Under the pieces are notes generated by a model. It was given only the letters and a program-made list of their open reading frames with translations. It searched no databases and had not been told where the DNA came from. The position numbers were made by a program, and so were the translations under genes. From NCBI RefSeq assembly GCF_900176885.1, contig NZ_LT839648.1:3508039-3572038 (forward strand): a stretch of DNA of 64,000 nt, read 5' to 3'. Below, piece by piece: positions 6,162 to 61,394 of the stretch; position 1 is the first letter of the stretch; every line of letters starts with the position of its first letter. Source of the DNA: Oceanobacillus senegalensis (lineage in GTDB: Bacteria; Bacillota; Bacilli; Bacillales; Amphibacillaceae).

Positions 6162-6824
6162 ATGACTGAAGTTCCTTTTATTGCTATCGAAGGTCCTATT
6201 GGCATTGGAAAAACATCTCTGGCTAAGAAGCTATCCAATCATTATGGATTTCATCTTTTAAAAGAAATTGTTGAGGAGAATCCTTTTCTAGGGAAATTTT
6301 ATGAGGATATTGAAGCATGGAGCTTCCAAACTGAAATGTTTTTCCTTTGCAATCGATTTAAACAGTTAGAGGATATCGAGAAACAGTATTTAAATAATAA
6401 AGAAGCTGTTATTTCCGATTACCATATATCAAAAAATATGATTTTTGCCAAGCGTACCTTAAAAGCAGATAAGCTTGATAAATATAAAAAAATTTATCAC
6501 ATTTTAACGGAAGATATGCCTGTTCCCAATATGATGATTTACTTAAATGCTAGTCTTGATACGATTTTAAAAAGAATTCATCTTCGTGGAAGAGATATAG
6601 AGCAAAACATTAAACCTTCCTATCTGGAACAATTATCTCAGGACTATGAGCATTATATGAATGAGTTTGAACAAATGCACCCAGAAATTCCAGTTATTCG
6701 AATTAATGGTGATGATGTGGATTTTGTACAATATCAAGTTGATTTAGATACAATTATCCAAAAGGTGGACATGCATTTAAAAAAACTTAGCGAAGAATTA
6801 AAGGGGAATAAAAATGAATCTTAG
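6162..6824 (+). CDS. dgk: Deoxyguanosine kinase
   Basis: A 220-residue deoxynucleoside kinase of the salvage pathway. The Walker A is GPIGIGKT, the DRS-like position reads SDYHISKN, and the lid arginines are in RIHLRGRDIE. The sequence follows B. subtilis Dgk (YaaG; PFIAIEGPIGxGKT...EMFFLCxRxKQLED). GGAGG precedes the ATG. It overlaps the next kinase by 11 bases, so the two are probably translationally coupled, as the dgk-dck pair is in B. subtilis. Confidence 0.94.
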   Translation: MTEVPFIAIEGPIGIGKTSLAKKLSNHYGFHLLKEIVEENPFLGKFYEDIEAWSFQTEMFFLCNRFKQLEDIEKQYLNNKEAVISDYHISKNMIFAKRTLKADKLDKYKKIYHILTEDMPVPNMMIYLNASLDTILKRIHLRGRDIEQNIKPSYLEQLSQDYEHYMNEFEQMHPEIPVIRINGDDVDFVQYQVDLDTIIQKVDMHLKKLSEELKGNKNES

Positions 6825-38045: not shown

Positions 38046-38666
38046 TTATATGCTCTGTTTATTTCGGGAGTGTTTAAGAACAATTGCGGGCATAGAGCGG
38101 TTATGTGTTAAATTACGATCCACTTTATCTAGTACAAATGCTAGTTCTTTCGCCATATCGGTTACAACGGATAGCCTAGTGTTTTGCAATACGGAATACT
38201 CCATAAACCCACCAATATTCACAACTCCAGATATATGCATGTCTCCCACTGGTGGCAGTGATTTATTTAAGGCAGCTCCAGGCTTTAAGGGTCCTTTTGC
38301 TGTAATGAATTGACCAATGGATGAATTTTTCCCTAAACAAGCATCAATTGCGATAATAAAAGGGTTTCGATGTGATTCCATAATGTGCTCAAGCGAGTCT
38401 TCTAAATTAGTAGCATGTATGGGCTGATGTAACGTTCCATAAACAGTCATATGTTTTAATCTTAATTCAGATAAATAAGTGCCGGTAAGAGGACCAAGGG
38501 CATCTCCAGTAGAGCGATCTGTACCAATGCAAACAATAATATATTCACGTGGAGCATCGGGCATCCATGAAATAATTTTCTCGCTCATCTTATGATGCAA
38601 TGTTGGATCATTATATAGCATACGAAAATTTTCATTAAAATTACCAAATCGACTCTTTAGATTCAT
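38046..38666 (-). CDS. yyaC: Sporulation protein YyaC (Gpr-like fold)
   Basis: A 206-residue YyaC (DUF1256). It has IVCIGTDRSTGDALGPLTGTYL and PFIIAIDACLGKNSSIGQF, which resemble the core of the germination protease Gpr/HybD fold, with conserved acidic residues. YyaC is sporulation-specific with no settled substrate. As in B. subtilis it is encoded near spo0J on the opposite strand. A forespore-type promoter candidate lies upstream. Confidence 0.92.
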   Translation of the reverse strand: MNLKSRFGNFNENFRMLYNDPTLHHKMSEKIISWMPDAPREYIIVCIGTDRSTGDALGPLTGTYLSELRLKHMTVYGTLHQPIHATNLEDSLEHIMESHRNPFIIAIDACLGKNSSIGQFITAKGPLKPGAALNKSLPPVGDMHISGVVNIGGFMEYSVLQNTRLSVVTDMAKELAFVLDKVDRNLTHNRSMPAIVLKHSRNKQSI

Positions 38667-49318: not shown

Positions 49319-49939
49319 TTATCTTAATCCCTTTGTCATAATCGGGTATAGATTCCCTCCTAATGCAAAGGTTGCTCTACCACTTTCCTCCGATACAACA
49401 AGTACTAACGCATCGGTTAATTCGCTTATTCCAAGTGCTGCACGGTGTCTTGTGCCGATTTTCTTAAGATTAACCTTTTTATTGGATACAGGTAAAATAT
49501 TTGCAGCAGAGACAATTTTATTATTACAGACTAATACGGCTCCATCATGTAATGGATTACCAGAGTAAAAAATGGATTCAAGTAATGGAGCAGATAATTC
49601 AGCATGGATAGGGACACCAGAATGGATGAACCGGGTTAGGTCATCGTTTCGTTGAATAACAATTAATGCCCCATGGTTTCTTTGAGAAAGATGCTGAATA
49701 GCAGTAGCTAGAACATCAAATTGTTTCGTAAAAGGGGCAAGATATCTACGCAGGTAATAAGAAGCTGCATTTACTTGTACATCGTGAAATAAATGGTGGA
49801 GTTCCTCAAACTCATTCAATACCGAAGATTCCCTTTGATCTATGGTTATAAGCATTTGTTGTATTTCCTGGGATAACCGTTCTAAGTTTCCTTTTAAATG
49901 ATTGAACATAGAGATCGTTATACCTGGGTTAGAAGGCAT
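49319..49939 (-). CDS. cdaS: Sporulation-type diadenylate cyclase CdaS
   Basis: A 206-residue c-di-AMP synthase. Two N-terminal helices (about 10-60) act as an inhibitory YojJ-type domain. The DAC domain follows with DGA at 132-134 (LHDGAVL) and RHR at 164-166 (GTRHRAALG), both catalytic. Length equals B. subtilis CdaS (YojJ, 207 aa). It is not the membrane CdaA or the DNA-scanning DisA. ATG 49939 follows a G7 tract; a further ATG at 49954 would place that tract inside the coding sequence. Confidence 0.93.
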   Translation of the reverse strand: MPSNPGITISMFNHLKGNLERLSQEIQQMLITIDQRESSVLNEFEELHHLFHDVQVNAASYYLRRYLAPFTKQFDVLATAIQHLSQRNHGALIVIQRNDDLTRFIHSGVPIHAELSAPLLESIFYSGNPLHDGAVLVCNNKIVSAANILPVSNKKVNLKKIGTRHRAALGISELTDALVLVVSEESGRATFALGGNLYPIMTKGLR

Positions 49940-50028
49940 TTTTTTCCCCCCCATAAAAACTAAAGGTTTTTATTTATTTTTAACTTGTTACGGTTTCTTA
50001 TTCACTGCTGATAAAATGGGTATATTAA

Positions 50029-54766: not shown

Positions 54767-54948
54767 ATAATTATATATTCAAAAGGTATGAGAAATAATA
54801 GGAAATAGTCATGGTCGTAGAAAAGAAAAAATGTTCATTACTCTTAACCCATAATATTATTGTTAAAGAGACTTGTCTATACGAATTTCTTCTTTCAGAC
54901 ATAAGAATATAGTATGTAATCTGATAGTTCTGAAAGGGGTTGTAGATA

Positions 54949-55575
54949 GTGAATTTGGATAAGGGAGTTATGGAAAAGCTAGATAAAATAAGTGTATCCA
55001 AAGCCTCAGGTGCTGTGGAAGTAAGTAATCCTACACAATTTAAAATGATAGGGAAGGGACATCAAGGGGCCGTATTTCAAATAGATGATCATCGTTGTGT
55101 AAAAATCTATAATACCAAAATAGACCGAGATAGAGAATTGGATGCGCTACAACGAGGTAATCAAATCGGTATCACCCCAAAGGTATATATTACAGGAGAT
55201 AAGTTTATTGTGATGGAATTTATCAAGCATCCGTCCCTGTTTGAGTATTTGGATAATAATCCATTGGACAAAGAGTTAACAGGTAAAATTGTTGATTTAC
55301 TGGATTCATTTGAACAAATTGGGTTCAACCGTTTTGATCATTCAGCAAGGCATATCTATGTTGTCCCTAATGGGAAATTGAAAATCATTGATGTTGTTCA
55401 CATGATCAAATCAGAGCCTGTTATGTTAGCTAAGAAGTTATTGGGAGATTTGGGGGATAAAGCAGAAGACTTCATACATCTGGTAAAAGAAGTTAGTCCC
55501 AAATGGTATGATACATGGAAAAATCACCCTGATTATGATGGACTAATGTTTAAAATAAAAAATAAAGGGAAGTAG
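54949..55575 (+). CDS. RIO/YrzF-like protein kinase
   Basis: A 208-residue minimal kinase fold. A glycine loop IGKGHQGAVF lies near 34-43. The ATP lysine is K52 in CVKIY and the hinge is VMEFI. The catalytic Asp is D130 in NRFDHSARHIYVVPNG and the metal Asp is D148 in KIIDVV. All key residues are present, so it is likely active. GTG start at 54949 follows GAAAGGGG. It is convergent with the GH57/GT4 cluster, whose far end encodes a degenerate paralogue. The substrate is unknown. Confidence 0.8.
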   Translation: MNLDKGVMEKLDKISVSKASGAVEVSNPTQFKMIGKGHQGAVFQIDDHRCVKIYNTKIDRDRELDALQRGNQIGITPKVYITGDKFIVMEFIKHPSLFEYLDNNPLDKELTGKIVDLLDSFEQIGFNRFDHSARHIYVVPNGKLKIIDVVHMIKSEPVMLAKKLLGDLGDKAEDFIHLVKEVSPKWYDTWKNHPDYDGLMFKIKNKGK

Positions 55576-55596
55576 TAATTCCATTTTATACAGTAG

Positions 55597-55627
55597 AAAA
55601 GGTTCTGCCGAGGAGCAGAACCTTTTT
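55597..55627. terminator. Bidirectional terminator at the cluster end
   Basis: AAAAGGTTCTGC-CGAGGA-GCAGAACCTTTT, A/T runs on both sides, between two convergent genes. Confidence 0.92.
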
Positions 55628-55636
55628 ACATGGTTA

Positions 55637-56443
55637 TTATTTTTTCTTCTTCTTCTTTTTTTTCTTCTTTTTCTTCTTCTTGGAGTCCGCCTGTAAATTG
55701 ATATTTGGTAATCTTTCTCTCGACTCAAGTAGGTGGGTGACAAGTGCTTCTCTTTCTTCTTCCGTTACATCCCAGTCGTATGGTATCGATTGGATGACAT
55801 TCTGAATGGTTTCTTCTGGTAATGCCATAATATTTGTAATGGCTTCCTGAATTTTATTTTCACTTTCCGGCCAATTTAAAGACCATTTGTGAACATTGAG
55901 GTTGACATCCATATTCGGCATTTCTTTCAAGGCCTTTATATCCCATTTGGCTTTGGAGAAACAACGTCCGTGGTCAATCATATGAAGGAAATGCTTTCCA
56001 TCGCCAACGGGTTCAAGCAAGACATTGTTTTCTTTTCGATCGGTATTACCCACCCAAAGATCAAATACAACCATTTTGGCAAGTTGGTCGCGATTACTCA
56101 CTTTAATGTGTGCATTGTCAGATCTTCTTTCTAGCTGGATGCAATTTGGAATATATAAACTAGCGAATTGGTTACCAGATGTAAAGCCGTGCTTGGCAAA
56201 AACATCATGTTGTTTTATAAAGTCATCTGTTATTTCGATTACTTCAAAGGGAATCACGGGGAGCGAAAGAATCTCACCTAATTTGGTGGCAATGTACTCA
56301 TTTACGAGAATTCTCGTTCCAGACGGATTATTTTTAAACTTTACAACATAAGAATTTCCGTCATTAAAAAGAATGTGCTGAGGTTTGGAGTATCCTTTAA
56401 AGACGGTATCTAAAAGTTTTACTGGTTGTAAATTCTCACTCAT
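55637..56443 (-). CDS. HipA-like kinase with poly-lysine C-terminus
   Basis: A 268-residue protein resembling the HipA_2 kinase-like family. It has an N-lobe lysine in SYVVKFKNNP, VFDLWVGNTDRKENNVLLE as the catalytic loop (D128, N133, D135, N139) and MIDHGRCF with D157 as the metal-binding Asp. It ends in 14 consecutive lysines (codons AAA/AAG mixed) immediately before the stop. ATG 56443 follows AGGAGG and starts right after the GH57 stop. A more upstream ATG at 56491 lies within GH57. HipA-like stand-alone proteins in Bacillus are often uncharacterised; no HipB partner is present. Confidence 0.82.
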   Translation of the reverse strand: MSENLQPVKLLDTVFKGYSKPQHILFNDGNSYVVKFKNNPSGTRILVNEYIATKLGEILSLPVIPFEVIEITDDFIKQHDVFAKHGFTSGNQFASLYIPNCIQLERRSDNAHIKVSNRDQLAKMVVFDLWVGNTDRKENNVLLEPVGDGKHFLHMIDHGRCFSKAKWDIKALKEMPNMDVNLNVHKWSLNWPESENKIQEAITNIMALPEETIQNVIQSIPYDWDVTEEEREALVTHLLESRERLPNINLQADSKKKKKKKKKKKKKK

Positions 56444-56444
56444 T

Positions 56445-58409
56445 TTAAGATGAACCTCCTTCGTATGGTGATGAAATAGGTCCCGACCCAATAAGGATGG
56501 AACCTGAACTTGATGAAATGGTTAGTCCTAGACAGAAACCATGTCCGAAAATGGGAACACGTGGTATTCTCCATACAGTGTCCTCTGACTCTATCGATAC
56601 CCATGAAACCACGTTTCCATTTTGAAAGCCTCTTTTACTATCTATTTGAAATGGTTGAATCGATGAGCGACCTTCGCGTAATAATCGCAAATAATCTGGG
56701 GATAGACCAATATCAAGAGATAGGGGTAAGATTTTGGAGGGGATATGCTCATAGCTTATTAAGACTTCATTATTCCCTTTCTTCAGTAAATAGCGCTTGG
56801 TCATCCCCATGGCTGCACTGTTGGTTTGAATGTTTTTCAGTATGAGTTCGACTTCATTTTCCTTTATATTGAGAGATTGAATGTCATACTTGTCATGTTC
56901 AAAGCCGTAATCTGCTAATGCACCGGGGTGGTTCATAGGAACATCCATAAAATCATTTAGTTCCTCCAGCCAATTCCAGTCATCGGTAGGATTCCCAATG
57001 GTAAGATGCCCATCGTCTTCACTATAGAAAAATTGGTAGATAATACGCCCACCGAATTGTGGAGATATGACCGTTGCGCCATGATTATTTCGTAGTACGA
57101 TTTCTTGATAACCATCATTATCTATATCATCGATAAAGGCATGGACAAAACGAGTTTTCTTTCGGTCTATTTGCCACTTTACGGATTCTATCAAAACGGA
57201 AGTTGATTGTGCGTGGCTGGCAACCGCACGTGCCCAATGTGCTGGTATAGCGACAGGATTGTTGCTTTTACCAGTATGAACACTGTTAGGGGCGTCGTGC
57301 CAAGCTGTTTCGTACGTGCAAGCAAGAAAGTGTTTTTTAGCTAAATCTAATAAGGAAGATGGATAGGTGATTTTAGAAGCGGTTTGTTTATACATATCCC
57401 ATGTCTTTTCCAAAATGCGTTGATAAGGTGCCCATCCTTTTGAGTTAGCCCAGTTCATATAATCTTTACCGGCGTCAAACAAGGTTTCTAGTTCTCGGTA
57501 GGTACCTGTTCCAATCGATTGTTGGGAGGTAATGCTGATATTTTCCAACCAAGATTGAAGGAAAACGGCTTTTACCTTTTTTTTCTTTGTTAGCCATTTA
57601 AGAAACTGTTTATAATGGTTGATGGCCTCTGGGTTCCATGGTGGAATTCCGGCAACCTTTTCCATGTCGTCACCATAGATTGCAATGGCGTCTCGACCAC
57701 TTTCTATCTCGTGCTGTATTTGAGAAATGAGCGTATTCAATCGTTGCTCTTGCTCTTTGGTTTCCAATGGGATTACTTGACGTAATTGATCTGAAAGAGG
57801 CAGCGCTATTAAATGGTCACTGTCCTTTATATATTGAGCCTCGAAAAGTTCTGGAATAAAGGATGGATTTTGGTCAAATTTATTACGTGACCTTTTCGGT
57901 AAAAACAATCGATCATCCAATAATACATATTGAAAACCTCCATTGGAAAGGGTGGGATCTGTTATAACATGGGCTAGTTTTTCGGTGTTCCAGACTCTTT
58001 CAGGGACCCAAAAACCGGAAACATCCGATAGATTCGACCCAAGCCATTTATCGAAAAGGTACAATTCTTCCTCCATTTGCAAGCGATTGTGTTCGTCGTC
58101 GAATAGAGGCATAATATTTTGGGCATAAGTGGAACCAATGATTTCGATTAATCCAGCTTCTCTTAGCTCAACTATTTCATTCAGAAAAAGTGGATCAAAC
58201 CAGGCACATGCCTCGATGAATGTACCACTGATATGAAGGTGAAATGGAATATCATATTCAGAGTGTAGGTCAAATATGGCACGCAAACCTGAGGAAGCAT
58301 CTGGGGGACCAATGATTTCTTCGATTCCTGGACGATTCTTATACCCATTGGTGATTAGATATTGATTAGCATGATGAACGATAGCTATAGGAACGTGGGA
58401 GAGGCTCAT
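56445..58409 (-). CDS. GH57 alpha-glucan enzyme, 4-alpha-glucanotransferase/amylase-like
   Basis: A 654-residue GH57 family protein. Conserved regions visible are AIVHHANQY (region 1, near 9-17), GFWVPERVW with the likely nucleophile E137, and AIYGDDMEKVAG with D247/D248 as acid candidates. The latter resembles the YDDGEKFG of archaeal 4-alpha-glucanotransferase. A beta-sandwich C-terminal half (about 405-654, AFIDDIDNDGYQEIVLRN) matches that subgroup. There is no signal peptide, so it is cytoplasmic. It overlaps the upstream phosphotransferase gene by 4 bases. The exact activity (transferase, amylase or branching) cannot be told from sequence. Confidence 0.85.
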   Translation of the reverse strand: MSLSHVPIAIVHHANQYLITNGYKNRPGIEEIIGPPDASSGLRAIFDLHSEYDIPFHLHISGTFIEACAWFDPLFLNEIVELREAGLIEIIGSTYAQNIMPLFDDEHNRLQMEEELYLFDKWLGSNLSDVSGFWVPERVWNTEKLAHVITDPTLSNGGFQYVLLDDRLFLPKRSRNKFDQNPSFIPELFEAQYIKDSDHLIALPLSDQLRQVIPLETKEQEQRLNTLISQIQHEIESGRDAIAIYGDDMEKVAGIPPWNPEAINHYKQFLKWLTKKKKVKAVFLQSWLENISITSQQSIGTGTYRELETLFDAGKDYMNWANSKGWAPYQRILEKTWDMYKQTASKITYPSSLLDLAKKHFLACTYETAWHDAPNSVHTGKSNNPVAIPAHWARAVASHAQSTSVLIESVKWQIDRKKTRFVHAFIDDIDNDGYQEIVLRNNHGATVISPQFGGRIIYQFFYSEDDGHLTIGNPTDDWNWLEELNDFMDVPMNHPGALADYGFEHDKYDIQSLNIKENEVELILKNIQTNSAAMGMTKRYLLKKGNNEVLISYEHIPSKILPLSLDIGLSPDYLRLLREGRSSIQPFQIDSKRGFQNGNVVSWVSIESEDTVWRIPRVPIFGHGFCLGLTISSSSGSILIGSGPISSPYEGGSS

Positions 58410-59395
58410 TGATAACCACTCCTTTGTAAATATTGTTCACACTTGCTGAGGAAAGCATCTACAATATGAAATTTACCAGTATTTAAAACGCATAATTCAT
58501 AGTGTAGACTTTCAAACAAAGAACGAGCACTGTATAATGCAAGACGATTTAAAAATGCCTGTCGATTATAGGAAGGATTTAGTTCAAGATACTTTGTGAT
58601 AAAATGCTTGACCATTGGTTGAAAAAAATCAAAATCGCCTTTTTTAATAAAGCTACTTACCTGTATTTGACAGGCAAAATATGCTACATCCCAAGCCGGG
58701 TCTCCATCAAAATGGTGGTCAAAGTCAATCGCAATCACTTGATCCTTGTGCATAAAAACATTTTTAGTATGAAAATCCCCATGCAGTAATACTTCTTTAT
58801 CTGTATTTAGTCTTCCAGATTCTTTCATAAAATGATGGTACAGCTCTCTAAGCCTTGATTGTTCTTTTGGTATGCATTTTTCAAGGTCTTCATAAAAACG
58901 CCTTATATCAGAATTTGCCCTTGTTTGACTCTTTTTCCGAATTTCTGTAAGAGGAATGGCATGCATCTGCGACATCCAGTAAGCAATAAGAGAAGCCAAT
59001 TGTTTATTATCGACTTTTGGATCATACATCCAATCATCCACTGTTTTACCTGGGGACTTGGACATAATCATCAATCCCCACTTTTTTAAATAAGCAATCG
59101 GACGTACAACGGTAAATTGCGGGTTGGAACGAAATCCATTTTCCCATAAATACTTTAAAAATTGATAGCTATCTATTCCTTTTTGGACATTAGAATAGAC
59201 CTTTCCAATTAATGATTCTTTTTTTACTTCTCCAGTTGGCGTACGGTATGTTACTAGATATTCTGCAATCATTTTTCGTATTTTAGGGGTGGAGGAAACC
59301 AGATCCACTTTTATAACCTGTCTTCCGTTTTTATAATGATTCTCATATGCTGAACGAATCACTTTATTCGAAGGAAGTCGCTCTTTGTTTTCCAT
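58406..59395 (-). CDS. APH/CotS-like phosphotransferase
   Basis: A 329-residue aminoglycoside-phosphotransferase-fold protein. The Brenner motif is H205-G-D207-F-H209-TK-N (LLHGDFHTKN) and the metal motif is AIDFDHHFDGDPAWD with D224. The family includes the spore-coat CotS/CotI kinases and sugar kinases such as maltokinase. With GT4 and GH57 neighbours both readings are plausible. AGGAG precedes the ATG. Confidence 0.8.
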   Translation of the reverse strand: MENKERLPSNKVIRSAYENHYKNGRQVIKVDLVSSTPKIRKMIAEYLVTYRTPTGEVKKESLIGKVYSNVQKGIDSYQFLKYLWENGFRSNPQFTVVRPIAYLKKWGLMIMSKSPGKTVDDWMYDPKVDNKQLASLIAYWMSQMHAIPLTEIRKKSQTRANSDIRRFYEDLEKCIPKEQSRLRELYHHFMKESGRLNTDKEVLLHGDFHTKNVFMHKDQVIAIDFDHHFDGDPAWDVAYFACQIQVSSFIKKGDFDFFQPMVKHFITKYLELNPSYNRQAFLNRLALYSARSLFESLHYELCVLNTGKFHIVDAFLSKCEQYLQRSGYQ

Positions 59396-59428
59396 TCATC
59401 CATCAACTCCTTTCTTGTTTAGAAATTT

Positions 59429-59466
59429 ATCGTAGGTTAAGGGGCAGTAACACTCCCATCTCACAA
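59429..59466 (-). repeat. Dispersed repeat R3, partial copy 3
   Basis: On the minus strand GGGAGTGTTACTGCCCCTTA followed by ACCTACGATAAATTT matches 63245-63275. It occupies the 137-base gap between the GT4 and phosphotransferase genes, together with short GGGGG/CCCCC inverted segments. Confidence 0.7.
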
Positions 59467-59532
59467 TGGAGGTAACACGAACCATTTTAGGTGGGGGATG
59501 AAAGAAAACCCCCTGATGATTGAATGCCCACT

Positions 59533-60663
59533 CTATTTTAAAAGTTCCTTATATAATAGTTGGGTTTTCGCAGCTACATGTTTCCAAGACCAGTTCAGTG
59601 CTTCTTGTGCTCCTTTTTTCCCTAAGTCTTGTCTTAAATTCGTATCCCCAAGCAATTTGAGGATTGCTTTAGCTAGCTCTTCAGGTTGATTAGGCTCAAC
59701 AACAAGAACATTGTGCACCATTTCTAATGCACCAGTTGTACTACTAATGATGGTAGGGACTCCTGAAGCCATTGCTTCCAGTACGGTTATTCCAAATGGC
59801 TCGGATCTAGATGGAAGAACAAATAGTGTAGCATTTTTGTAGCAATCCAATAGTTTGTCTCCAAAAACGGTGCCAGGAAATTCTACCTTATCAGCAATCT
59901 TCCAGCGACGGGCTTTCAGGCGTAACTTATGGAGTAGGTCTCCGTCTCCTGCTATCATAAAACGTGTATGTTCACGTTCTGAAATAACTAGTTTCGCTGC
60001 TTCTAAAAAGTCCTCTGGTGCCTTCTGTCCAGTTAATCTACCAAGGAATAACACATAGCCATCCGTTTCTTGATAGTTTCGGTTTGCTAGCGGTCTATAA
60101 GAGGAGATATCTATCCCATTATAAATACTGGTAACCTGGTCTGGATTCGCTCCATACCGATTCACTAAAATGTCCTTTGTTCGATTAGAAACAGCAATCG
60201 TATGTGTTACGGTACTTAAAGCTTCTTGTTCAATCGTATAAACTGCTGGATTCATTGACATTCCCCCAGAGCGGTCATATTCGGTAGAATGAACGGTCCA
60301 AATGAAAGGAATATGATGTTTTTGAGCAATTTCCGTTGCGGCATAAACTCCCATCCAATCATGTGCATGAATCATATCGACCTCAGTTGGATCAAATTGT
60401 TTATTGAGCTGGTTTCGAAATTCCATCACAGAGTCCCACATGACGCTTCCTAAATAGGAATTATCAGAGAAAGAATGGCTCATTTGTACGTGATGAATGG
60501 CCATTCCATCGGGAGTACTAAATTCGAACTCTTTAAATTTAGGGAGATAGTATTCAATTTCTACACCAATATCAGCTAGTTCCTTTGTTAAAGCTTGGCA
60601 GTGGATGCCAAGACCTCCCGAAAACTGTGGAGGGTATTCCCAACTAATCATTGCTACTTTCAT
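59533..60663 (-). CDS. GT4 family glycosyltransferase
   Basis: A 376-residue GT-B fold glycosyltransferase. The N-terminus MKVAMISWEYPPQFSGGLGIHCQ is typical of starch/glycogen-synthase-like GT4 enzymes. LFLGRLTGQKAPEDFLEA opens the second domain, and the donor motif is SRSEPFGITVLEAMASG (E-x7-E). B. subtilis CotSA is also GT4, next to cotS. Here the SWEYPP-GGLG start and the GH57 partner point rather to alpha-glucan chemistry. Adjacent (4 bases) to the upstream gene. Confidence 0.87.
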   Translation of the reverse strand: MKVAMISWEYPPQFSGGLGIHCQALTKELADIGVEIEYYLPKFKEFEFSTPDGMAIHHVQMSHSFSDNSYLGSVMWDSVMEFRNQLNKQFDPTEVDMIHAHDWMGVYAATEIAQKHHIPFIWTVHSTEYDRSGGMSMNPAVYTIEQEALSTVTHTIAVSNRTKDILVNRYGANPDQVTSIYNGIDISSYRPLANRNYQETDGYVLFLGRLTGQKAPEDFLEAAKLVISEREHTRFMIAGDGDLLHKLRLKARRWKIADKVEFPGTVFGDKLLDCYKNATLFVLPSRSEPFGITVLEAMASGVPTIISSTTGALEMVHNVLVVEPNQPEELAKAILKLLGDTNLRQDLGKKGAQEALNWSWKHVAAKTQLLYKELLK

Positions 60664-60667
60664 CCCA

Positions 60668-61321
60668 TCACCCCCTTAATTTAGCTTTATCTACTGTGGA
60701 CTGAAACTTTGGATGCTTTGTCCATTTTTTGTACAAATCAGAGTCTAATTCTTCCACGTACTTGAGAAAGGTAGGTGCCTGTTTACCCATTCCTTTGATT
60801 AATCTTTGTGGAAATTCCTTCCCGGGTATTTTCGTATGACGGTGCACATTTACTACCTTGAAGCTGCCATCTGGCATGAGGTAAATGTATTCTGGACTTT
60901 GATCAAGACGGGTATAACCAACTGCTTTAAAATCATTCAGAAGCTTCAGTAGTTTTTTGGTAAATTCCTTTGTAATGGTATTCTCCTTTAGATAATCAGC
61001 AACTGTTGGCGCATCAATCGGTTCCATTACTACGTAAGTACCTTTTCTTCCATATACAGTTGGAGTAATTCCTTGCTTCGCCCCAAGTTGAAGGGATTTA
61101 AATTCTTTCTCCGCTTTTTCTTCTTTTTCAAAATAAGCTGCACAATGATTTTTATCGATACCAATGACCACTCGCTTCTCTTCATGACTAATAACAGATA
61201 GGTCTGTCGGGTTATGCACTACCATCCCTGTATCTTCAGGTTTTGTCACCTTGATTTTATGGATCTCTTTGACTAATTGTTTGTCACTGAATCCTTTGGA
61301 ATCTTTGGCCATAATGAACAC
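60668..61321 (-). CDS. Degenerate kinase-like protein (paralogue of the gene at 54949)
   Basis: A 217-residue protein aligning with the kinase at 54949-55575: LGAKQGITPTVY vs RGNQIGITPKVY, and GYTRLDQSPEYIYLMPDG vs GFNRFDHSARHIYVVPNG. The glycine loop is lost, the ATP lysine position is Ala (HCAAYF vs RCVKIY), and the metal Asp is Asn (VVNVHRH). It is therefore probably a pseudokinase. The start is GTG 61321 or ATG 61312; AAAGGAGA spacing is imperfect for both. First gene of the minus-strand cluster. Confidence 0.78.
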   Translation of the reverse strand: MFIMAKDSKGFSDKQLVKEIHKIKVTKPEDTGMVVHNPTDLSVISHEEKRVVIGIDKNHCAAYFEKEEKAEKEFKSLQLGAKQGITPTVYGRKGTYVVMEPIDAPTVADYLKENTITKEFTKKLLKLLNDFKAVGYTRLDQSPEYIYLMPDGSFKVVNVHRHTKIPGKEFPQRLIKGMGKQAPTFLKYVEELDSDLYKKWTKHPKFQSTVDKAKLRG

Positions 61322-61365: not shown

Positions 61366-61394
61366 TAAGGTATGGAAATCTATCAAAGGGGAGT
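61366..61394 (-). promoter_or_regulatory. Possible SigK promoter of the GT4/GH57 cluster
   Basis: Minus strand: AC (61393-61394), 18 bases, CATACCTTA (61366-61374), which fits the SigK -10 CATANNNTA; the spacer is one base longer than usual. The rest of the 435-base gap (61395-61756) shows no other element I can support. Confidence 0.35.

What the first reader, a model, noticed from the sequence alone, without database searches (positions are those of the whole stretch)
54949..61321. GH57 + GT4 + four kinase-fold proteins: a possible undescribed phospho-glucan or spore-surface system
Five tightly packed minus-strand genes encode a pseudokinase-like protein, a GT4 glycosyltransferase, an APH-fold phosphotransferase, a GH57 glucanotransferase-like enzyme and a HipA-like kinase. 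They face a convergent active-looking RIO/YrzF-like kinase. Gaps of 1-5 bases or 4-base overlaps (except one 137-base gap) argue for one transcript. Established: GH57 and SWEYPP-type GT4 act on alpha-glucans; APH-fold proteins include maltokinase and the CotS/CotI coat proteins; CotSA is GT4. Inference: a pathway that builds and trims a glucan and phosphorylates it, or glycosylates and phosphorylates spore-surface material.
Basis: partly seen in the sequence, partly recalled or inferred. Interest (0 to 1): 0.8.

Follow-up and report, generated by a model that had tools for sequence, protein, structure and literature searches.

The report
Mobile spore-coat glucan and kinase cassette
Six neighbouring genes, found together in a few scattered spore-forming bacteria, look like a small kit for building, reshaping and perhaps phosphorylating a sugar polymer late in sporulation, probably for the spore surface.

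Summary
In detail: five minus-strand genes (RIO/YrzF-like pseudokinase, GT4, APH-fold kinase, GH57, HipA_2 kinase) and a convergent active-looking YrzF-like kinase. It is not chance: the same six genes recur in five other Bacillota loci (four in the same layout, one with the sixth gene about 5 kb away) and five of them in a sixth locus. Yet GH57 occurs in only 1 of 159 genomes of the window's family (its own). GC3 is raised in five of the six genes, and the unit carries its own terminator, so it looks horizontally spread.

The GH57 catalytic residues and the Lys that marks 4-alpha-glucanotransferases are invariant (8 of 8). One YrzF copy has lost the ATP-site Lys and the DFG-type Asp in 6 of 6 loci: a conserved pseudokinase. 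Sigma-K -10 elements precede 9 of 11 cassette leaders against 3 of 119 controls; the window's own YrzFconv leader is one of the two misses. Paralogous YrzF/HipA_2 proteins elsewhere sit with GT4 and GalU genes, as in known ytd/ytc/cotS spore-glycan clusters. I favour a sigma-K-expressed spore-envelope alpha-glucan module, possibly phosphorylating. Chemistry and spore location are inferred. New variant of a known kind; interest 0.55.

The parts
54949..55575 (+). YrzFconv: small RIO/YrzF-like kinase, active-looking, convergent to the operon
   Evidence: ORF; RIO1 18 bits, below cut-off; Gly-loop, ATP-site Lys, catalytic Asp and DFG-type Asp present in 6 of 6 copies
54900..54909 (+). weak counterpart of the sigma-K -10 element upstream of YrzFconv (CATAAGAATA; not an exact match)
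   Evidence: no exact -10; 4 mismatches to the full consensus, whereas the 6 other loci have 1-2
55597..55627 (.). bidirectional intrinsic terminator between the two converging units
   Evidence: fold about -21 kcal/mol on either strand; same stem sequence in L005 and L006; not listed by the general scan
55637..56443 (-). HipA_2 kinase (likely ATG 56443; longest ORF from TTG 56491)
   Evidence: PF20613 81.7 bits; active-site residues in 5 of 5 copies; junction
55640..55681 (-). run of 14 Lys codons at the HipA_2 C-terminus, mixed AAA/AAG, so not a homopolymer slip
   Evidence: a Lys-rich tail also in L010, a short one in L005/L006
56445..58409 (-). GH57, 4-alpha-glucanotransferase type
   Evidence: PF03065; E137, D248, K251 in 8 of 8; Thermococcus litoralis enzyme best by sequence and by fold
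58406..59395 (-). APH-fold kinase, active-looking
   Evidence: PF01636; K65, D207, N212, D224 in 6 of 6
59533..60663 (-). GT4 glycosyltransferase, SWEYPP type
   Evidence: PF00534; R209, K214, E288, E296 in 6 of 6
60668..61321 (-). YrzFps: YrzF-like pseudokinase, first gene of the operon (start GTG 61321 or ATG 61312)
   Evidence: ATP-site Lys lost and DFG-type Asp replaced by Asn in 6 of 6 copies, catalytic-loop Asp kept in 6 of 6
61366..61374 (-). exact sigma-K -10 element (CATACCTTA) upstream of the operon; the -35 is poor
   Evidence: 3 mismatches in all, reached by 18% of controls

Best explanation
A horizontally spread cassette, transcribed by sigma-K RNA polymerase in the mother cell late in sporulation, that makes a glycan for the spore envelope (coat or crust). 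Shown: the conserved gene set, intact catalytic residues, the conserved pseudokinase, sigma-K-type promoter elements in relatives. Inferred: GT4 elongates an alpha-1,4-glucosyl chain from an NDP-glucose; GH57 redistributes the chains; the APH-fold kinase phosphorylates a sugar or glucan intermediate (its pairing with this GH57 recurs in loci from two other phyla); HipA_2 and the active YrzF kinase phosphorylate a partner protein or the glycan, with the pseudokinase as activator or scaffold and the Lys-rich tail tethering the complex to an acidic coat polymer.
For: Conserved unit in six other Bacillota loci. Exact sigma-K -10 in 9 of 11 cassette leaders against 3 of 119 controls; full consensus with 1-2 mismatches in YrzFconv leaders of 6 of 6 other loci, a level reached by 2 of 125 controls, while sigma-A, E, F and G consensuses do not stand out. 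Sigma-K gene over the cut-off in 5 of 6 Bacillota hosts tested, fragments in the sixth. CdaS and YyaC over cut-off in the window. Same kinase families next to GT4 and GalU genes in L030 and L031, matching in content the spore-glycan clusters described in PMC2860764 (section 15), PMC4670728 (passages) and PMC7439481 (passage). SpoVB-like gene in L011. GH57 fingerprint. GH57-APH pairing in L008 and L009.
Against: The window's own YrzFconv leader has 4 mismatches to the consensus, and the operon leaders in all six loci scored have a poor -35 (3-4 mismatches in all, reached by 18-71% of controls). No nucleotide-sugar genes in the cassette. APH is not a CotS-family protein by its curated model. GH57 and APH relatives also occur in two MAGs of other phyla without a sigma-K match over the cut-off, so this chemistry is not spore-specific in itself. 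No expression, localisation or enzyme data.
Confidence: 0.5

Rival explanations
1. A cytoplasmic phospho-alpha-glucan or maltose-1-phosphate-type storage or osmotic pathway not tied to spores: GT4 acts like GlgM or Rv3032, APH like a maltokinase, GH57 remodels chains.
For: GT4's best curated model is glgA_Coryne (142.1 bits); alpha-maltose-1-phosphate synthase is among its solved relatives; GH57-GT4 partnership is known for mycobacterial MGLP (PMC2674218 passages); no protein has a strongly hydrophobic segment.
Against: glgA_Coryne cut-off 302.4 not met; sigma-K elements in the leaders; three further kinase-fold proteins unexplained; GH57 has no branching-enzyme C-terminal domain match.
Confidence: 0.2
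2. A spore-surface protein-modification module: GT4 glycosylates and the kinases phosphorylate coat proteins; the glycan itself is not phosphorylated and GH57 only trims.
For: HipA_2 has a weak Fam20C hit (E 0.0028, below cut-off); HipA and RIO folds include protein kinases (recalled); Lys-rich tails.
Against: A 4-alpha-glucanotransferase-type GH57 needs alpha-glucan chains; the APH fold is of small-molecule type; the HipA_2 model was too poor to compare folds (mean pLDDT 52.3).
Confidence: 0.2
3. An anti-phage or conflict system: patchy, mobile, with kinases and a pseudokinase.
For: Patchy distribution; HipA_2 weakly matches candidate defence models PDC-M66A and PDC-M03A (best 47.5 bits) and a phage protein family (phrog_3162, 129 bits); GT4 matches PF20706 GT4-conflict among seven Pfam families.
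Against: 5 of 6 proteins match no PADLOC model at E<=0.01; no relative of the GH57 in phages, plasmids or viral contigs; sporulation-type promoters.
Confidence: 0.07

Closest known systems
cotSA-cotS / ytaA (cotI) / ytcABC-ytdA spore-glycan clusters of Bacillus, with BSK kinases (PMC2860764)
   Same: A GT4 gene beside an APH-like (choline/aminoglycoside-kinase type) gene, with pseudokinases in the family, patchy loss, and sigma-K control (shown for ytdA in PMC4670728)
   Different: GT4 of glycogen-synthase-like type with a GH57; APH protein outside the CotS model (20 of 172.7 bits); adds HipA_2 and two YrzF-like proteins; no nucleotide-sugar genes in the cassette
ytc-like GT4 + two-domain YrzF + GalU + UDP-glucose dehydrogenase locus in the same genome (L030)
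   Same: YrzF-like kinase domains next to a GT4; Lys-rich tail
   Different: Both YrzF domains look active there and are fused; different GT4; no GH57 or APH
Thermococcus litoralis 4-alpha-glucanotransferase (GH57; PDB 1k1w, 1k1x)
   Same: Catalytic Glu and Asp, fingerprint Lys, overall domain order
   Different: About 15-17% identity by fold alignment; genetic context
Mycobacterial MGLP cluster Rv3031 (GH57) - Rv3032 (GT4)
   Same: GH57 and alpha-1,4-glucosyltransferase GT4 in one cluster
   Different: Rv3031 is a predicted branching enzyme; the MGLP cluster has methyltransferases; the cassette has kinases
GH57-GT4 fusion protein with DUF4912 neighbour (L034, G373)
   Same: GH57 and SWEYPP-type GT4 together in a genome of the same order
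   Different: Branching-enzyme GH57 (BE_C domain) and GT4 in one polypeptide; none of the cassette's kinase proteins matched within its 19.5 kb

Membership tests
GH57 4-alpha-glucanotransferase | GH57 domain over the Pfam cut-off | tested here: met
   PF03065 68.4 bits, cut-off 21.2
GH57 4-alpha-glucanotransferase | Catalytic Glu (fingerprint 15) and Asp (20), aromatic at 12, Lys at 23 (PMC6037648 section 10) | tested here: met
   E137, D248, W134, K251 invariant in 8 of 8; the assignment of fingerprint numbers to residues is mine
GH57 4-alpha-glucanotransferase | Disproportionation of maltooligosaccharides | not testable with these tools
   needs purified enzyme
CotS/BSK spore kinase family | Curated CotS model TIGR02906 | tested here: not met
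   20 bits, cut-off 172.7
BSK-GT4 spore-glycan cluster | GT4 gene adjacent to an APH/CAK-type kinase gene | tested here: met
   and the loci
BSK-GT4 spore-glycan cluster | Nucleotide-sugar genes (ytdA, ytcA-B) in the cluster (frequent, not universal) | tested here: not met
   none among the six cassette genes; a separate locus L030 has them
BSK-GT4 spore-glycan cluster | Sigma-K control | tested here: inconclusive
   -10 elements 9 of 11 against 3 of 119; full consensus only for YrzFconv of relatives; no transcription data
GlgM/glgA_Coryne glycogen synthase | Model TIGR02149 over its cut-off | tested here: not met
   142.1 bits, cut-off 302.4
HipBA toxin-antitoxin | HipA_C domain over cut-off and a hipB-like partner | tested here: not met
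   HipA_C 19.1 bits, cut-off 30.5; HipA follows GH57 by 1 base, with no separate ORF of 80 aa or more upstream on that strand
Mycobacterial MGLP (Rv3031/Rv3032) type | GH57 of branching-enzyme type (BE_C domain; Leu at fingerprint 23) | tested here: not met
   no BE_C match; Lys at 23
Known anti-phage systems (PADLOC) | Several components match models of one system | tested here: not met
   1 of 6 proteins, and only candidate models

The most novel reading that the evidence does not exclude
Some spore formers dress their spores with a phosphorylated, remodelled alpha-glucan made by a mobile sigma-K cassette, in which the APH-fold enzyme is a new glucan or sugar kinase and a YrzF kinase with its dedicated pseudokinase controls polymer synthesis. 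That would be a new class of spore polymer and a bacterial kinase-pseudokinase switch on glycan synthesis.
Probability: 0.25. Interest if true: 0.78.

Novelty: new variant of a known kind. Interest (0 to 1): 0.55.

Why it matters
Why so many spore-coat proteins have kinase folds, and what the CotS/CotI kinases phosphorylate, is open; PMC2860764 proposes a reactant of the neighbouring glycosyltransferases. This cassette adds a GH57 enzyme whose substrate class (alpha-glucan chains) is predictable, which narrows the candidates and makes the question testable with purified enzymes. The pseudokinase, kept beside an active paralogue in separate families, is a compact bacterial kinase-pseudokinase pair. 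The scattered distribution suggests that spore-surface chemistry can be exchanged between species as a package.

Tried and rejected
GH57 relatives in plasmids, viral contigs and phages: none. Rfam over 50-64 kb: none at gathering score. Sigma-70-type scan: 22 sites against a mean of 25.0 in shuffles, uninformative. GerE sites (consensus recalled, one mismatch allowed): no consistent match. HipA_2 model: mean pLDDT 52.3, not used for a fold search. Branching-enzyme reading of GH57: rejected (no BE_C match; Lys at position 23). HipBA toxin-antitoxin: rejected. Poly-Lys tail as a homopolymer artefact: rejected, its codons are mixed.

Limits of the promoter test. The motif was set before the scan, but the -80..-25 range was chosen. 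Eleven leaders were scored: six YrzFconv, five YrzFps. The YrzFps leader of L011 (85 bp downstream of YrzFconv, same direction) was left out; one search prints no CATANNNTA there, so counting it gives 9 of 12. L007's YrzFps was scored from an internal start (6650); a longer frame begins at 6485, so its -10 lies inside that longer frame. L036 came later and is not in the 9 of 11; the leaders printed show the -10 in both of its units. Merging the close relatives L005 and L006 gives 7 of 9. The four ytc-like leaders were scored apart: exact -10 in 2 of 4, full consensus with 2 mismatches in 1 of 4 and 4 mismatches in 3 of 4. Spacer ranges for sigma-A, F and G were recalled. The controls grew from 119 to 125 because L036 was added.
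Full report
1. The observation. On the minus strand, in transcription order: YrzFps (60668-61321), GT4 (59533-60663), APH (58406-59395), GH57 (56445-58409), HipA_2 (55637-56443 from its likely ATG). On the plus strand YrzFconv (54949-55575) converges on them. Pfam places GH57, APH, GT4 and HipA_2 over their cut-offs; YrzFconv matches RIO1 below its cut-off and YrzFps matches nothing at E<=0.01, but the two are paralogues (31% identical). Gaps are 4, 137, -4 and 1 bases. A bidirectional terminator hairpin lies at 55597-55627 between the converging units; the general scan did not list it.

2. It is a real unit. GH57 was searched in 159 genomes of the window's family (1 match, the window's own; 20 listed same-genus genomes had none), 397 of the order (4 matches at E<=0.001: its own, G279, G384, and a distant GH57-GT4 fusion protein in G373), 398 of the phylum at E<=1e-60 (1, its own; the samples differ, and G279 and G384 were evidently not drawn), 7 and 43 genomes of the families of G279 and G384 (1 each, the starting genome), 193 of the family of Neobacillus niacini (3) and 244 of the class of the Geobacteraceae MAG (1, itself). 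One scan of the 84,980-species collection with peptide patterns of the window's protein gave 5 loci; it finds close relatives only. All six genes are present in L005 (Bacillus sp. EB106), L006 (N. niacini), L010 (G279) and L036 (G1339) in one layout, and in L007 (Shimazuella alba) with YrzFconv about 5 kb away. L011 (G384) has five of the six in one direction and, where HipA_2 would be and 365 bases on, a SpoVB-like flippase (TIGR02900, 260.3 bits, cut-off 372.3). By ORF listing the surroundings differ, except among L005, L006 and L036, which are close relatives. GC3 of five of the six genes is 0.316-0.379 and of APH 0.276, against a mean of 0.275 (sd 0.025) for 35 other mechanically picked ORFs of the window. 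The terminator stem is the same in the window, L005 and L006; L010 has another hairpin, and L036 was folded over only the first 100 of 285 bases without a clear one. This fits horizontal spread of a self-contained cassette, or widespread loss; no gene-tree test was run.

3. What the parts are. GH57: the only solved relative by profile at E<=0.001 is Thermococcus litoralis 4-alpha-glucanotransferase, also the best fold match of a predicted model (mean pLDDT 78.0; Foldseek E 1.3e-22, TM 0.42, rmsd 11.8, 17% identity; GH38 mannosidases and other GH57 enzymes follow). Window E137 and D248 align with its E123 and D214 (counted; their catalytic role there is recalled). PMC6037648 (section 10) gives Lys at fingerprint position 23 for 4-alpha-glucanotransferases, Leu for branching enzymes, Phe for alpha-galactosidases; K251 fits in 8 of 8 sequences. 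GT4: solved relatives include alpha-maltose-1-phosphate synthase and GlgA, but the curated glgA_Coryne model is not reached (142.1 of 302.4 bits). APH: active-site residues intact in 6 of 6; far below the CotS model. HipA_2: active-site residues intact in 5 of 5; Lys-rich tail in the window and L010, short in L005/L006. YrzFps: ATP-site Lys lost in 6 of 6, DFG-type Asp replaced by Asn in 6 of 6, catalytic-loop Asp kept in 6 of 6: a conserved pseudokinase. No protein has a strongly hydrophobic segment (highest 19-residue Kyte-Doolittle mean 1.39), so all are probably cytosolic (inference).

4. When it is expressed. An exact sigma-K -10 (CATANNNTA) between -80 and -25 occurs in 9 of 11 cassette leaders (YrzFconv 5 of 6, operon 4 of 5) against 3 of 119 other leaders in the same loci (Fisher p 5e-10, which treats related loci as independent). 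With the printed B. subtilis consensus (table in PMC3416734, passages; gap of 14-16 nt in PMC517825, passages), YrzFconv leaders of 6 of 6 other loci have 1-2 mismatches, a level reached by 2 of 125 controls; the best cassette matches to sigma-A, F and G are reached by 26% or more of controls and to sigma-E by 13%. Against this, the window's own YrzFconv leader has 4 mismatches (71% of controls do as well), and the six operon leaders have 3-4 (18-71% of controls): five of them, counting L036, keep the -10 but not the -35, and L010's has neither exactly. A sigma-K gene over the cut-off is present in 5 of 8 genomes tested (G000, G279, G384, G958, G959). Shimazuella (G960) has a related sigma factor below the cut-off and three sigma-K-like fragments; the B. 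subtilis control also stays below the cut-off, as 0 of 14 controls reach it. The Geobacteraceae and Acidobacteria genomes have only distant sigma hits. G1339 was not tested. The window itself holds two sporulation genes over curated cut-offs, CdaS and YyaC.

5. The company its parts keep. Searching 100 genomes of the family, YrzF-like proteins were found in 3 (E<=1e-15) and HipA_2 relatives in 3 (E<=1e-10). In the window's own genome the other YrzF copy is one 465-residue protein with two YrzF domains and a Lys-rich tail, next to a GT4 gene, GalU (over cut-off), a nucleotide-sugar dehydrogenase (over cut-off) and an epimerase-like gene (L030). The two-domain protein recurs beside a GT4 in L032 and L033. 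In G016 a YrzF-domain protein, a GT4 and a HipA_2 protein follow a GalU-like gene (L031; that gene and the divergent dehydrogenase-like gene there were read by eye, not scanned). The layout resembles the B. subtilis ytdA-ytcABC and cotS clusters: ytdA is sigma-K-dependent and YtdA-GFP shows a coat-type pattern (PMC4670728, passages); ytdA-ytcABC was reported to take part in crust morphology and surface properties (PMC7439481, one passage); CotS/CotI kinases cluster with the GT4 enzymes CotSA/YtcC (PMC2860764, section 15). Orthology of L030 to ytd/ytc is inferred from gene content; no B. subtilis sequence was compared.

6. Beyond Bacillota. Two MAG loci (L008 Geobacteraceae, L009 Acidobacteria) carry a GH57 40% and 38% identical to the window's, directly followed by two and one APH-fold kinases (22-26% identical to the cassette's) and, a few genes on or directly, ABC exporters 52% identical to each other; L008 also has a sulfotransferase and an ATP-sulfurylase/APS-kinase gene. 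No relative of the cassette's GT4, HipA_2 or YrzF proteins was found in these two loci. The GH57-APH pair thus occurs outside the spore cassette, which argues that the APH kinase acts on the GH57's substrate or product (inference from three lineages).

7. Interpretation. Best supported is a sigma-K-expressed glycan-making unit of the spore envelope, of the general kind of the cotS/ytc clusters but with another enzyme set. Substrates and phosphorylation targets are inferred. Library searches pairing GH57, CotS, glycosyltransferase and spore (20 of 22 papers listed), HipA with CotS and glycosyltransferase, GH57 with spore coat and glucanotransferase with spore coat listed no paper whose title or abstract start describes such a cassette; only the listings were judged, and the library lacks most subscription journals.

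Noticed in passing
window 49319-49954 (-) and 38046-38666 (-): Two sporulation genes over curated cut-offs near the cassette: CdaS (sporulation-specific diadenylate cyclase, 272.6 bits, cut-off 225) and YyaC (spore protease, 213.2, cut-off 84.9).
   Followed up: no
L030:8264-13073 (G000:C4, about 856.7-861.6 kb): GT4, a 465-residue protein with two YrzF-like kinase domains and a Lys-rich tail, GalU and UDP-glucose dehydrogenase-like genes in a row: a likely spore-polysaccharide locus in the same genome. Both domains keep the kinase motifs.
   Followed up: partly
L031:8198-12821 (G016): GalU-like gene, a 643-residue protein with one YrzF domain and a long acidic/Lys-rich low-complexity region, GT4 and HipA_2 in a row: an independent pairing of HipA_2 and YrzF with a GT4.
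   Followed up: partly
L034:8171-11561 (G373): DUF4912 protein followed by a 923-residue fusion of a branching-enzyme-type GH57 (BE_C) and a GT4.
   Followed up: no
L008:4656-15774 and L009:2787-7669: GH57-APH followed by an ABC exporter in MAGs of Geobacteraceae and Acidobacteria; L008 adds a sulfotransferase and an ATP-sulfurylase/APS-kinase protein, suggesting an exported, sulfated glycan.
   Followed up: partly
G960 (Shimazuella alba), contigs C10, C22, C34: Three separate fragments matching different parts of the sigma-K model (2-69, 62-118, 136-227), as if sigK were interrupted by skin-like elements or split in the assembly.
   Followed up: no
window 59396-59532: The 137-base GT4-APH gap is particular to this copy (about 40 bases between the ORFs in L005 and L010) and holds a GGGGG...CCCCC inverted repeat without a T-run.
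   Followed up: no
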